From Acidobacteriota bacterium (lineage in GTDB: Bacteria; Acidobacteriota; Terriglobia; Acidiferrales; UBA7541), in the NCBI GenBank assembly GCA_003225315.1, contig QHZD01000019.1, forward strand, positions 324,311 to 388,310: a stretch of DNA of 64,000 bases, written 5' to 3'. The position numbers were made by a program, and so were the translations under genes. Under the pieces are notes generated by a model that saw only the letters and a program-made list of their open reading frames with translations, searched no databases and was not told the origin of the DNA. Position 1 is the stretch's first letter. Every line of letters begins with the position of its first letter. This document shows, in pieces, positions 1,223-7,861 of the stretch.

Positions 1223-1234
1223 GCTCATCTTCCT

Positions 1235-1260
1235 GTAGGGGCACGATACATCGTGCCCTT
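1235..1260 (+). repeat. GTAG-headed REP-like palindrome (GTAGGGGCACGATACATCGTGCCC)
   Basis: GTAG head plus GGGCACGAT-AC-ATCGTGCCC (9+2+9 palindrome). Confidence 0.85.
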
Positions 1261-1275
1261 CTTGGTCCCTTCCCC

Positions 1276-1302
1276 GTAGAGGCACGATACATCGTACCTC
1301 CT
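1276..1302 (+). repeat. Degenerate GTAG-headed REP-like palindrome
   Basis: GTAGAGGCACGATACATCGTACCTC, diverged copy of the 1235 element. Confidence 0.75.
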
Positions 1303-1869
1303 TCACTCGAATCTACTCGGCTTGATTCTTCCCTCTGGGTTTTCCCTGTCCCACTCCCATCGCTGGGGATTTTCGAGAATGTATCGGCTCGCGTCCGCGT
1401 ATTCTTTTCCATCCCTTAGCACCCGTTCAAAATAGTTTCGTTGCCAGATGTCATTGCTGCTGATTCCCAATTCTTTTTTTGCTCGGCGCGCAACCGCTGC
1501 CTTGAACGTCCGGACAACCGTCGGTATGGAGCCTTTCACCGGCTTTTGAAATTTTTCCGGAGTTCTCGCCTCCCGATCGAAGGGCACGATGTATCGTGCC
1601 CCTACGGTCAATCCAAGGATTCCGTGCATGTGATTCGGCATCACCACGAATTGGTCCGCCGATGCTCTTGGAAAATGTTCAGGAATCTCGATCCAACACG
1701 CTCGAACGATTTCTCCAAGTGGGCTCAAAATAATTCGTTCCTTGTCAATTTTGCCGAAAATACTCCTGCGTTCCGCGGCGCAAATCGTAATGAAATACGC
1801 CCCCGGTTCCGAATAGTCCGCTCCTCCCAATCGGATTGACCTACGATGAAGTTTCCGCTCTTCAGACAA
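1303..1869 (-). mobile_element. REP-associated tyrosine transposase (RAYT; IS200-like Y1 transposase family)
   Basis: Y1_Tnp hallmarks: YFITICAAERRSIFG, FVVMPNHMHGI (HUH), IWQRNYFERVLRDGKEYADASRYILENPQRW; flanked by REP palindromes. Confidence 0.9.
1581..1605 (-). repeat. REP-like palindrome inside the RAYT coding sequence
   Basis: Reverse complement reads GTAGGGGCACGATACATCGTGCCCT; translated in frame as VGARYIVP. Confidence 0.9.
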
Positions 1870-1974
1870 GCCAATTCACGCGCACTCTACCCATACTTTG
1901 CGATTTTACTCTCCCCGTACGGGCACGACACAACTTGCCCCGGCCGGCCGGTATCGTTCCATCCGTTTCTTCCC

Positions 1975-2400
1975 GTAGGGGCACGATACATCGTGCCCTT
2001 CTTAATCTCCGTGGCAACTCGGAACTTATCCCGACTGGGTCGGGATCGTTCCCTTCTTTAATCCCTGCCGTAGGGGCACGATACATCGTGCCCTTCTTAA
2101 TCTCCATGGCAACTCGGAACTTATCCCCACTGGGTCGGGATCGTTCCCTTCTTTAATCCCTGCCGTAGGGGCACGATACATCGTGCCCTTCTTAATCTCC
2201 GTGGCAACTCGGAACTTATCCCCACCGGGTCGGGATCGTTCCCTTCTTTAATCCCTGCCGTAGGGGCACGATACATCGTGCCCTTCTTCGTCTGCATGGC
2301 AACTCGGAATTTGTCCCTACTGGTCGGGATTATGCCCTTCTTTAATCCCTTCCCGTAGGGGCACGATACATCGTGCCCTTCTTCGTCTCCGTGGCAAATC
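1975..2400 (+). repeat. REP/BIME-like tandem array, five GTAG-headed palindromes with 95-bp period
   Basis: GTAGGGGCACGATACATCGTGCCCTTCTT starts at 1975, 2070, 2165, 2260 and 2355; a second hairpin (CCCGACTGGGTCGGG type) lies between copies. Confidence 0.92.
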
Positions 2401-2723
2401 CCGCTCATCGTCGGCCGTATAGGCGCCGGACGGCCGTCCTCAATTCCTTTGCTTCCAGGCGTCCTCCGATTTGCTCGTTGGGAAATGCCATAACTTCTTT
2501 GGTGGCGGCAAAACGCTCTTCGCTCGCGGTCAGCGAGCCATGAATGAAGTCGTCTCGCGGTAAGCGCGCATTCTGCGCCCCCGCACGCTTCGCCGGGGCG
2601 AGCCCTGAAAAATCGAAGGTCCCGGCCTTGTCGGGAAGACCCGCTCTTTTCTTTTCCCCCCGTTCTGTTTATCAATACTTCATTCCACTCCACCCAGCGC
2701 TCTAAATCACGAGATTCCTAGCC

Positions 2724-3812
2724 CTAGACTTTAGGCCGTGGCTTACCTGCCTTCGATGATCGCAAAGGTATTCCCACTGCACCAGCCAGCCGTTGCCGGA
2801 ACTCTTCCCAATCTCTACCTTTGCGTTCGAGCAGCTCCGTAACGTCAAACCATTCTGTTGTGGTCTGCGATTCCTGCTCTAGCTTGCGCATTTCCAAGCC
2901 CGTCTTTGAGATGATTGTCCAAAAATCCTTGAAGCCTTTTTGTCTTGCTTTCAAGTGTGACTTCTCCGCTTCACCCGCACGATTGTGAGCGTTACTAACA
3001 TCTGTTCCGCCCTTCACTTCGATAGCGACCTTGCTGTGAATGTGGTCCTCAACTTTTTCCTGCACGCTAACATCAGGGTCGTGCGAGAGACTAACGAAAA
3101 CCGTCCGGTCGGACGCATTTTTCAACGTTAGCCGATTCGGTTCTTTCTTCGTTAGGGCCTTTTCAAGGATTTCAGTGATGGCAAGGAAGATTTCTTGCAT
3201 CGCTTTCTTGCCAATCTGCGTATTGTTAGAACCTTGTAACTGCGAGCCGAACGTGAGCAGAGGCAGTTCACGTAAGTCTCTGTCAGTGAAGTTAGGGATC
3301 TGGCGAACGAGATGAGCGAGCGGGTCGGCCATTGCAGCGCAAAAATCTGGAATGTGGGTTTGCTGTTTCTTGGACATCGCGCCCATCTCTTCCATGCGCT
3401 TGAAGAGTCCCATGCCTGTTGCTCCTTTATAAAAGCATTTCTGAGGGGCTCCAAGAAGAAGACGGTAGTAGCCAATCAGAGTAGGCTTGGTTTCTATAAC
3501 GCAAGGCACAGGAAACACATATTCATCACGCAGACCGGCTGCCGCGAGCAACTTCCGCACATCGGCTGGCACGTAGTCAGCAATTTGATTCTTGACTCTG
3601 TTTTGGTCGAGATTCCTCAGCGCTTCAGAAAGCGCATCCATGAAATACTTTTTGCGTGCCGCAACCAGTAGCTGATGGAATCCTAGCTGACGGGACGCAC
3701 CAGGAGGTTTGAAAAAACGTTTAGTTTCAGCACTTGACGCCGACTTGGCTGGCTTGGAATTCACAATGTTCGGTACTACTCGCACTTTTTGGATTTGCGA
3801 AACACAAGCCAA
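2724..3812 (-). CDS. Type II restriction endonuclease, XcyI/Cfr9I-like (PD-(D/E)XK)
   Basis: Overlaps and follows a methyltransferase gene; VAIEVKGGTD looks like a PD-(D/E)XK core; DYVPADVRKLLAAAGLRDEYVFPVPCVIETKPTLIGYYRLLLG resembles recalled XcyI-family sequence (recall only). Confidence 0.6.
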   Translation of the reverse strand: MACVSQIQKVRVVPNIVNSKPAKSASSAETKRFFKPPGASRQLGFHQLLVAARKKYFMDALSEALRNLDQNRVKNQIADYVPADVRKLLAAAGLRDEYVFPVPCVIETKPTLIGYYRLLLGAPQKCFYKGATGMGLFKRMEEMGAMSKKQQTHIPDFCAAMADPLAHLVRQIPNFTDRDLRELPLLTFGSQLQGSNNTQIGKKAMQEIFLAITEILEKALTKKEPNRLTLKNASDRTVFVSLSHDPDVSVQEKVEDHIHSKVAIEVKGGTDVSNAHNRAGEAEKSHLKARQKGFKDFWTIISKTGLEMRKLEQESQTTTEWFDVTELLERKGRDWEEFRQRLAGAVGIPLRSSKAGKPRPKV

Positions 3813-4504
3813 TAGCAGTGCTGCCTTCTGCTATGGTGCGCATTTTTCCATTTTGGGTCGATGATTGGACCTTTGCGAATTTTTATAATGCAGTCGCAGG
3901 CAGTCAGACCTGCTTCACGAGCGGAGTTTATGAAATCAAGGTGTGCCCACTGGTAGCGATGGTGATGAACGTAGTCAGCTATCTTACAGAGTAGAATGCC
4001 TTCTGTCCTCAATACACGGCAGGTTTCTTTCAAGAAAGGCGGAAACGTGTGAGAGAAAGTGTAGTTATTTTCTTTCGACGAATTCAGCACTAGACCAAAC
4101 CGCGTGTTGAAGTCCTTCGACTTGTCTTTTCCCTGATTAGGAATATGTGGTGGATCATAGACCACGACGTCAAAACAGGCATCACGGAACGGCATCCTAG
4201 AATTGTCAGCAATAATCGCGGGGCGGTGACGCGGGTCGATGTCTATGCCAATAACTGGCCGCTTGCTGCCTCTCCAAAACCTGCCCCCATTGACGGTAGC
4301 GTCCAGAATTCTACGTGGTCTCTTTCGGGGATAGAACGCAAGCAGGCGTTCGATCAGTTCTGCGTCCTCTCCGTACCACACTGACGCCAGTGGGACGTAA
4401 CCGGAGTCTTTTTCCGTTGAGGCCGGGGTCTTTCGCTTGGTGAGTGGAAATAATGTAAGAGCTGTCGCCATCTCTTTCGTGATTAACCTACACGCCGGCG
4501 TCAC
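3776..4504 (-). CDS. DNA methyltransferase (modification partner), SAM-dependent
   Basis: ILDATVNGGRFW (motif I region), VVVYDPPHIPN (DPPY-like motif IV); stop overlaps the start of the nuclease ORF by 37 bp. Confidence 0.75.
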   Translation of the reverse strand: MTPACRLITKEMATALTLFPLTKRKTPASTEKDSGYVPLASVWYGEDAELIERLLAFYPRKRPRRILDATVNGGRFWRGSKRPVIGIDIDPRHRPAIIADNSRMPFRDACFDVVVYDPPHIPNQGKDKSKDFNTRFGLVLNSSKENNYTFSHTFPPFLKETCRVLRTEGILLCKIADYVHHHRYQWAHLDFINSAREAGLTACDCIIKIRKGPIIDPKWKNAHHSRRQHCYWLVFRKSKKCE

Positions 4505-5446: not shown

Positions 5447-7150
5447 ATGTCCACGGACGACAGCAACACAAATCAACCGGAAACGCCACACAACGGCTTC
5501 CTGTCCCGCTACGCCTTCAGCACCGATCACAAAACCATCGGCCTCAACTATTTGTGGCTTGCTTTGTTCAGCGTTTTTCTCGGCATGGCCATGTCGCTGC
5601 TCATGCGCATCCATCTGGCTTGGCCGGGAGTGCATCTCCCGTTCCTCTCCAGCCTCGGCAATTTGCCGGATCGCTTTGCCGCACTCACTACGCTTCATGG
5701 TTCGCTGATGGTTTTTCTGGTGCTCACCGCCGCGCCCCAAGCTGGCTTCGGAAACTATTTCCTGCCCCTGCAGATCGGCGCGCGCGAAATGGCTTTCCCC
5801 ACGCTGAACCTTCTCGCGTTCTGGCTCACAGTAGCCTCGCTCTTTGGCATGACCGCGACGTTCTTCCTTTCTCCGCAATCCGCCATCACGCTTTGGATCG
5901 TCAGCGTCGCCATCTTTTGCGCCGCCTCTCTCCTCAACGCGCTCAATTTCACCGTTACGACGATCGATCTCCGCGCCCCTGGCATGACGCTGCCGCGGCT
6001 TCCACTCACCGTCTGGGCCTGGTTCATCAACGCCATTCTCGGCGCGTTAATTTTCAGCATTCTCCTGGCGGTCTGTGTTTGCCTGCTCTCCGATCGCGTC
6101 TTCAGCACACACTTTTTTCCCCTACTGAATTTCGTTGCCAATCAACGGTCGGGCGTCATCCCCAACGCCGTCCCCGTGCTTTGGCAGCGCCTGTTCTGGT
6201 TTTTCGCGCAAGCCGAAGTCTACGTCGCCATGCTTCCATGCTTCGGCTTAACGACGCATCTGATTTCCACGTTTTCCCGCAAGCCGGTTTGGAAAGAGCG
6301 CCTCGTGGTTCTGGCGCTGTGCGGCGTGGGCCTCTTCGGTTTTTGTGTTTGGGGTCAGCATATGTTTTCCAGCGGTATGAACCCCTTTTCGCCGCTGGTT
6401 TTTTCGCTGCTGGCTTCTTCGCTTGGTCTGCCTGCCACGATCCTCGTCGTCTGTTGGTTCGGCACACTATGGAACGCGCGCCTCCAGCTCAACACCGCCA
6501 TGCTTTTCGCGCTCGGTTTCATTTCGCTTTTTCTCTCCGGCGGGCTCTCCGGAATTTTCCTGGCGCGCCACGATCTCGCCGCCGCTGCCGCCGTCAGCGA
6601 CGATTTCGTCACCGGCCATTTCCATCTGGTCATGGGCGTCGCCGCGACGTTCGCCATTCTTGGCGCGCTGTTTTTCTGGTTTCCCAAACTTTTTGGCCGC
6701 CGCCTGAACGAGCCGCTCGGCAAACTTCATTTCTGGCTGACCTTCGCTGGCGTCTACTGCGTTTTCATGCCGATGCACTGGCTCGGTCTCATCGCCCATT
6801 CGCGCGTTTCACCGAACGGGGATACGACTTCCATCGCCGCGCCCGGCTCTTCGATCCACACGTTCATCACGGTCGCAATTCTCCTCACTGTTTTCGCGCA
6901 AGGGCTGTTCCTCATCAATTTTCTGTGGAGTCTCTTCCGCGGCGAAAAAGTTGTGGAATGCAATCCGTGGCGTGCCACCACGCTCGAATGGAGCGTCTCT
7001 TCACCGCCGCCCGCCGACGATTTTGGCGCGACCGACCCAGTGGTGTATCGTGGGGCTTACGAGTTCAGCGCGCCGGATGCGGCCGACGATTTCGTGCCCC
7101 AACATCTTGCGCCAGAGCAAGTGGTCAAGGCACGCAAGGCTGGAGAGTAG
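5447..7150 (+). CDS. Heme-copper oxidase subunit I homologue (COX1-like), Cu_B site altered
   Basis: LFWFFAQAEVYVAMLP, FCVWGQHMFSSGMNP, DDFVTGHFHLVMGVAA, TTLHGSLMVFLV align to COX1 motifs; start chosen at MSTDDSNTNQPETPHNGFLSRYAFSTDHKTIG. Confidence 0.85.
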   Translation: MSTDDSNTNQPETPHNGFLSRYAFSTDHKTIGLNYLWLALFSVFLGMAMSLLMRIHLAWPGVHLPFLSSLGNLPDRFAALTTLHGSLMVFLVLTAAPQAGFGNYFLPLQIGAREMAFPTLNLLAFWLTVASLFGMTATFFLSPQSAITLWIVSVAIFCAASLLNALNFTVTTIDLRAPGMTLPRLPLTVWAWFINAILGALIFSILLAVCVCLLSDRVFSTHFFPLLNFVANQRSGVIPNAVPVLWQRLFWFFAQAEVYVAMLPCFGLTTHLISTFSRKPVWKERLVVLALCGVGLFGFCVWGQHMFSSGMNPFSPLVFSLLASSLGLPATILVVCWFGTLWNARLQLNTAMLFALGFISLFLSGGLSGIFLARHDLAAAAAVSDDFVTGHFHLVMGVAATFAILGALFFWFPKLFGRRLNEPLGKLHFWLTFAGVYCVFMPMHWLGLIAHSRVSPNGDTTSIAAPGSSIHTFITVAILLTVFAQGLFLINFLWSLFRGEKVVECNPWRATTLEWSVSSPPPADDFGATDPVVYRGAYEFSAPDAADDFVPQHLAPEQVVKARKAGE

Positions 7151-7177: not shown

Positions 7178-7861
7178 ATGCCGGGCACAACCGCAGTTCC
7201 GGAAATTGAAGCCATCGTCGAAGACATCGGCGGTGGCGGCGGCGGCCCACTCCTACCTCCAGACGGAGGTGATGACGGCGATGGAGGCGGCGACGATCAC
7301 AATCGCCGCCGCAGGTGGTCCCCTTCGCCGAAACGTTACTCGACTGCGATTACGATTGGCATCGTTTCGATTTTGATGTTTTTTATGGCCCTGTCCAGCG
7401 CTTTCATCGTTTTGCGCCGCGGCAGCGACCTGTGGATGACTGTCCACCTTCCGCGCATTCTCTGGGCCAACACCTGCGTTCTCCTCGCGAGCAGTTTCAC
7501 TCTGGAATCCGCGCGCCAGCGGCTCTATCTTGCAGATGCTTCCGGCTTCCGCAAGTTTTGGTTAGCGACCACGGTGCTTGGTTTTCTTTTTGTGGCCGGG
7601 CAACTCGTTGCGTGGCGCCAGCTTGTTGCGCAAGGTGTATACATCGCCAGCAACCAGGCCAGCAGCTTCTTCTATATTTTCACCGGCGCTCACGCAGTTC
7701 ACCTGCTGGGGGGCGTCGGGGCTCTGCTTTTTGTTGCGTTCCGCAAATTTGAAAAGACAAAGATTTCGCTTCCGGCAGCAGCGGAAATCACTTCTTACTA
7801 CTGGCATTTTATGGATGGACTTTGGATTTTCCTGCTAGCTCTTCTTTATCTTGGAAAATGA
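7178..7861 (+). CDS. Cytochrome c oxidase subunit III-like
   Basis: FYIFTGAHAVHLLGGVGALLF and SYYWHFMDGLWIFLLALLYL are COX3 signatures. Confidence 0.85.
   Translation: MPGTTAVPEIEAIVEDIGGGGGGPLLPPDGGDDGDGGGDDHNRRRRWSPSPKRYSTAITIGIVSILMFFMALSSAFIVLRRGSDLWMTVHLPRILWANTCVLLASSFTLESARQRLYLADASGFRKFWLATTVLGFLFVAGQLVAWRQLVAQGVYIASNQASSFFYIFTGAHAVHLLGGVGALLFVAFRKFEKTKISLPAAAEITSYYWHFMDGLWIFLLALLYLGK

What the first reader, a model, noticed from the sequence alone, without database searches (positions are those of the whole stretch)
5447..7150. COX1-like heme-copper oxidase subunit missing two of three Cu_B histidines and the K-channel lysine
Seen: canonical GHPEVY reads AQAEVY (CAA codon) and canonical AHHMF reads GQHMF (CAG codon), so Cu_B ligands equivalent to bovine H240 and H290 are both Gln. 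H291, the HFH heme ligands (H376/H378 equivalents), the TLHG heme ligand, E242 and Y244 equivalents are kept. The IPTGIKVFSW segment reads LPATILVVCW, so the K-channel Lys is gone. Intact hemes without a normal Cu_B site suggest an electron-transfer, NO-related or sensory role rather than O2 reduction.
Basis: partly seen in the sequence, partly recalled or inferred. Interest (0 to 1): 0.78.

Follow-up and report, generated by a model that had tools for sequence, protein, structure and literature searches.

The report
Copper-stripped cytochrome oxidase in soil Acidobacteria
A group of soil bacteria keeps, alongside its normal oxygen-respiring enzyme, a second version that has lost the copper site, the copper-carrying partner subunit and one proton channel, yet is still maintained by natural selection, so it probably holds haem but cannot respire oxygen in the usual way and does some other, unknown job.

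Summary
Window 5447-7150 encodes a full-length, A-type-derived COX1 in which two of three Cu_B His (bovine H240, H290) and the K-channel Lys are replaced. It is not a one-off or a simple pseudogene: orthologues occur in 27 of 36 genomes of the same acidobacterial genus (gp2 MAGs). In 25 full-length copies position 240 is Gln (24) or Leu (1), 290 is Gln/Glu/Tyr/Leu, 319 is always Leu; H291, all three haem axial His, E242, Y244 and W236 never vary. Further losses: no COX2/CuA gene at any such locus (present at every canonical locus compared); the periplasmic loop with bovine W126 is deleted; D364, H368 and R439 equivalents are gone. Erosion concentrates on the periplasmic COX2-docking face (9/44 ancestral invariants kept versus 107/167 elsewhere, p=3e-7). 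COX3 always stays next to it; dN/dS is 0.13-0.22 (canonical paralogue 0.02-0.08). I conclude: a copper-free COX1-COX3 membrane haem protein derived from an A-type oxidase, almost certainly not an O2 reductase and not a known NOR. Its actual activity (gas binding, slow redox chemistry, or scaffold) is inferred, not shown.

The parts
5447..7150 (+). COX1-like protein (P0001, 567 aa), 12 transmembrane helices, copper ligands lost
5696..5698 (+). H84, low-spin haem axial ligand (bovine H61), invariant 25/25
5864..5884 (+). site of deleted periplasmic loop III-IV (GWTxYxPL segment with bovine W126 absent in 25/25)
6209..6211 (+). Q255 (CAA) in place of Cu_B ligand bovine H240
6356..6358 (+). Q304 (CAG) in place of Cu_B ligand bovine H290; Q/E/Y/L in relatives
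6359..6361 (+). H305, equivalent of the third Cu_B ligand H291, invariant 25/25
6443..6445 (+). L333 in place of K-channel Lys K319, Leu in 25/25
6563..6604 (+). periplasmic loop IX-X that lost D364, H368 and the neighbouring acid (Mg/propionate site)
6617..6625 (+). H391-F-H393, high-spin and low-spin haem ligands (bovine H376/H378), both His invariant 25/25
6803..6808 (+). R453-V454 in place of the propionate Arg pair R438/R439 (R439 lost in 25/25)
7178..7861 (+). COX3-like protein (P0002, 227 aa), 27 nt downstream, retained next to every orthologue whose contig reaches that far

Best explanation
The locus encodes a copper-free, two-subunit (COX1+COX3) membrane protein that descends from an ordinary three-subunit A-type cytochrome c oxidase. 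Shown by sequence: Cu_B cannot be held in the usual way (two of three His lost clade-wide, replaced by unrelated residues), CuA is gone with COX2, the K channel is gone, the periplasmic docking and propionate face is eroded, while the three haem axial His, most of the D channel (N, Glu for Asp, N, terminal Glu), Tyr244 and His291 stay. Inferred: it still binds a bis-His low-spin haem and a five-coordinate high-spin haem, so the second haem binds O2, NO or CO (or reacts slowly with them or with peroxide) without four-electron O2 reduction. The likeliest use is as a membrane gas-binding / redox-buffering haem protein next to the canonical oxidase. Which ligand, which electron donor and which output are not known.
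For: 25 full-length orthologues with the same losses and the same retained residues; monophyletic (UFBoot 96) on a long stem (0.85 subs/site), grouped with canonical copies of sister genera that keep all ligands and coxB (UFBoot 100); no coxB at any such locus versus coxB at every canonical locus compared; own genome has 3 COX1 and 3 COX3 loci but only 2 COX2; purifying selection, dN/dS 0.13-0.22 in close pairs, partner COX3 0.08-0.27 with 35/45 ancestral invariants kept; erosion focused on P-side loops, 9/44 versus 107/167, p=3e-7; clade-specific new invariants W37, P183, R248, C265, W282, E284, W445, which suggest a new constraint rather than mere decay; fold intact.
Against: No biochemical evidence that haem is bound at all; propionate contacts are lost. 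Retention of the three haem His alone is not statistically striking (about 55% of ancestral invariants are kept, so about 0.17 for three). No sensor or signalling gene beside it. Selection is weaker than on the canonical paralogue; two of 28 copies carry lesions (L023/L050 in-frame stop, L058 frameshift; MAG errors possible); nine genomes of the genus lack it.
Confidence: 0.45

Rival explanations
1. Haem-free or redox-silent scaffold: the COX1-COX3 pair no longer works as a redox protein but helps assemble, stabilise or regulate the canonical aa3 oxidases or holds haem A in transit.
For: COX3 is retained and normally constrained; a canonical oxidase (COX2) is present in 36/36 genomes of the genus; the haem propionate contacts are lost.
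Against: The COX2-docking face is the most eroded part, so joining a canonical complex through COX2 is unlikely; all three haem His and most of the D channel are kept in practically all copies.
Confidence: 0.22
2. Electron-transfer or quinol/cytochrome-linked enzyme with another acceptor (for example peroxide), with electrons entering at the exposed low-spin haem.
For: Low-spin and high-spin haem ligands, E242, Y244 and most D-channel residues kept.
Against: No CuA subunit, no bo3-type Q-site residues R71/D75, no cytochrome c or quinol partner beside it: neighbours in relatives are gap-pgk-tpi-secG, a nucleoside hydrolase and aminotransferases.
Confidence: 0.15
3. Slowly decaying duplicate: copper and COX2 were lost first and the rest is drifting away.
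For: dN/dS about three times that of the canonical paralogue; 81 of 199 ancestral invariants eroded; two copies with lesions; absent from nine genomes of the genus.
Against: 26 of 28 copies keep an open full-length frame down to about 61% identity; dN/dS far below 1; new clade-specific invariants; COX3 co-retained.
Confidence: 0.13
4. A nitric oxide reductase or NO dismutase of a new type (Fe_B or other metal in place of Cu_B).
For: NORs are members of the same superfamily with changed active sites (PMC8756737).
Against: Described NORs replace the Tyr; here the Tyr is kept and two His are lost; position 290 is variable (Q/E/Y/L), so no substitute metal ligand is conserved there.
Confidence: 0.04

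Closest known systems
A-type haem-copper oxygen reductase subunit I (CtaD/CoxA, TIGR02891; Pfam PF00115)
   Same: fold, 12 helices, haem axial His, E242, Y244, H291, descent
   Different: two Cu_B His, K-channel Lys, W126 loop, D364/H368/R439 lost; NCBIfam score 415 bits against a cut-off of 671
Canonical coxBAC oxidase of the same genome (L002) and of sister genera (L031, L033, L034, L104)
   Same: closest homologues (48-57% identity) and same COX1-COX3 order
   Different: they have coxB and all ligands; L002 carries one in-frame TGA
eNOR / sNOR / gNOR / CuANOR
   Same: haem-copper superfamily proteins with altered active sites, often annotated as cytochrome c oxidase
   Different: they are recognised by a change at the active-site Tyr (Q, N, D), which is kept here (PMC8756737 Table A4)
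E. coli cytochrome bo3 subunit I (CyoB)
   Same: fold and core residues
   Different: quinol-site R71 and D75 absent here

Membership tests
Haem-copper oxygen reductase (A type) | six conserved His (three haem, three Cu_B), used as an inclusion filter by the HCO classifier (PMC3084760) | tested here: not met
   4 of 6 kept in 25/25 copies
Haem-copper oxygen reductase (A type) | helix VI Tyr (Y244) and D-channel Glu (E242) | tested here: met
   25/25, though the His partner of the Tyr cross-link is gone
Haem-copper oxygen reductase (A type) | K-channel Lys | tested here: not met
   Leu in 25/25
Haem-copper oxygen reductase (A type) | COX2 (CuA or cupredoxin) subunit in the operon | tested here: not met
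   no coxB within the fetched flanks of any orthologue, window included; own genome has two COX2, both in canonical operons
Haem-copper oxygen reductase (A type) | COX1 fold and common descent | tested here: met
Haem-copper oxygen reductase (A type) | binds two haems and reduces O2 | not testable with these tools
   needs purified protein
Nitric oxide reductase (cNOR/qNOR/eNOR/sNOR/gNOR) | active-site Tyr replaced by E, Q, N or D | tested here: not met
   Tyr kept 25/25
bo3-type quinol oxidase | Q-site residues R71, D75 (E. coli CyoB numbering) | tested here: not met
   L/V/A and M/L/I in 25/25; residue numbers from memory, positions confirmed in the CyoB sequence
Pseudogene | disrupted frame and dN/dS near 1 | tested here: not met
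   open frame in 26/28 copies, dN/dS 0.13-0.22

The most novel reading that the evidence does not exclude
A neofunctionalised, naturally copper-free branch of the haem-copper superfamily: a COX1-COX3 haem protein that keeps both haem sites and a D-type proton path but uses neither CuA nor Cu_B, acting as a membrane gas sensor/binder or as a new kind of haem-only redox protein.
Probability: 0.45. Interest if true: 0.8.

Novelty: new variant of a known kind. Interest (0 to 1): 0.6.

Why it matters
Papers describe members of this superfamily as all carrying the same haem-copper centre (PMC5829832 abstract), and the standard classifier discards sequences without the six His (PMC3084760), so natural copper-free members would be filtered out unseen. 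A conserved clade gives 25 natural variants in which CuA, Cu_B, the K channel and the propionate face went together while the haem His and most of the D channel stayed: a natural dissection of what those residues are for. It also warns that three COX1 genes in such a soil genome do not mean three oxygen-respiring enzymes.

Tried and rejected
Misalignment or His shifted elsewhere: rejected. Sequencing error or lone pseudogene: rejected, shared by 25 orthologues from several metagenome projects. COX2 missed nearby or unlinked: none. NOR: rejected. bo3-like quinol oxidase: Q-site residues absent. Neighbourhood partner: upstream genes in relatives are glycolytic (gap, pgk, tpi), secG and a nucleoside hydrolase, not redox. 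Cytochrome bd as alternative oxidase in this genome: none. Wider spread: profile searches of 399 class and 396 phylum genomes found nothing between the genus copies (881 bits and up) and canonical ones (743 bits and down); the six best phylum hits all have normal Cu_B ligands. First AlphaFold run on 25 sequences was poor (pLDDT 55). Literature searches for Cu_B-less natural homologues found none in the held library; subscription papers are not covered.

Full report
What is there. The frame 5447-7150 (+) encodes a 567-residue COX1 (Pfam PF00115, E 6e-97) and is followed after 27 nt by a 227-residue COX3 (7178-7861, PF00510).

Is it fixed in a clade? Yes. The window's genome (4.98 Mb, 97.6% complete) lies in an acidobacterial genus of which 36 genomes are held; 27 carry an orthologue at 61-92% identity, and the named relatives are mostly gp2 Acidobacteria MAGs from several projects. 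In 25 full-length copies: 240 = Q24/L1, 290 = Q16/E4/Y4/L1, 291 = H25, 319 = L25, E242 25, Y244 25, W236 25, the three haem His 25 each. The exact Gln/Gln pair is therefore not the conserved thing; loss of His is. Variability at 290 argues against a replacement metal ligand there.

What else is lost. COX2 is missing: tblastn with both coxB of this genome hits every canonical COX1 locus compared and none of the loci of this clade, and the genome has three COX1 and three COX3 loci but two COX2. Of canonical-invariant columns, P-side loops keep 9/44, N-side 30/50, membrane helices 77/117 (P loops versus rest p=3e-7; loop limits were set by hand from the known bovine topology). So the erosion tracks the side on which COX2 docks and the haem propionates point, while the helical core stays. 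This is a coherent picture of an oxidase that lost its CuA partner and its Cu_B.

Origin. A maximum-likelihood tree puts the 25 copies in one clade (UFBoot 96, stem 0.85 substitutions per site) grouped with canonical coxBAC oxidases of sister genera L031, L033, L034, L104 (UFBoot 100). Those have all ligands and coxB. The simplest reading is that the loss is derived and happened once on the stem of this genus's copy.

Selection. Pairwise Nei-Gojobori dN/dS in the 12 closest pairs is 0.13-0.22; for the canonical paralogue of the same genus 0.02-0.08. The protein is thus constrained, about three times less than a working oxidase. COX3 beside it shows 0.08-0.27, similar to canonical COX3 (0.08-0.15), and keeps 35 of 45 canonical-invariant columns. 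New invariants (W37, P183, R248 replacing an invariant His, C265, W282, E284, W445) point to a changed rather than merely relaxed constraint. Caveat: retention of the three haem His is not by itself significant, since just over half of all ancestral invariants are retained.

Structure. AlphaFold2 with 49 sequences gives pLDDT 77, pTM 0.83; Foldseek matches COX1 of Paracoccus, Rhodobacter and mitochondria along the whole chain (TM 0.77-0.79 on the query). The lowest confidence lies in the loop at 377-383 and near the two ends. Half of the alignment is canonical COX1, so the model partly reflects them.

Mechanism. Shown: no conserved way to hold Cu_B or CuA, no K channel; the classical reduction of O2 to water should be impossible. 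Inferred from retained axial ligands: a low-spin and a five-coordinate haem remain, so diatomic gases could bind at the second haem; the D path could bring protons to it. I consider gas binding/redox buffering the likeliest function, a scaffold the next. The full mechanism is given 0.45; that it is a copper-free non-oxidase I would put near 0.9.

Compared with what is known. It descends from A-type oxygen reductases but fails their defining six-His test (PMC3084760), COX2 and K-channel tests. The alternative NORs alter the Tyr (PMC8756737). No natural clade without Cu_B ligands was found in the searchable literature; the classifier's own filter would have discarded it.

Limits. All sequences are MAGs; expression is unknown; haem binding is unproved. 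Flanks upstream of the orthologues are 0.5 to 6 kb depending on contig. Profile searches sampled 399 class and 396 phylum genomes, not all.

Noticed in passing
L002 (G000:C14:45432-47105, minus strand): The second canonical coxA of the window's genome, which has coxB and coxC, carries one in-frame TGA where relatives have the second Gly of a VTGG motif; close relatives (L065, L066) have no stop there. Sequencing error or a recent loss.
   Followed up: partly
window 1229-2447: Eight to nine copies of a 39-nt repeat built on the near-palindrome GGGCACGATACATCGTGCCC, five in a 95-nt tandem array, around ORF 1303-1869 (-) that looks like a REP-associated tyrosine transposase (judged by eye; no Pfam hit).
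   Followed up: partly
window 2724-4504 (-): XcyI-type restriction endonuclease (PF09571, E 1e-89) next to a probable methyltransferase (3776-4504, judged by eye, no Pfam hit), upstream of COX1 where relatives have secG and a nucleoside hydrolase.
   Followed up: partly
L051: Record titled Betaproteobacteria holds a member of this acidobacterial clade with the same downstream neighbours; the matching genome (G032) is placed in the window's genus, so the title is probably a mislabel.
   Followed up: no
L056, L057, L112: Acidobacterial COX1 copies with all Cu_B His that nevertheless lack the K-channel Lys at the aligned position (for example TIPASIISLNW in L056).
   Followed up: no
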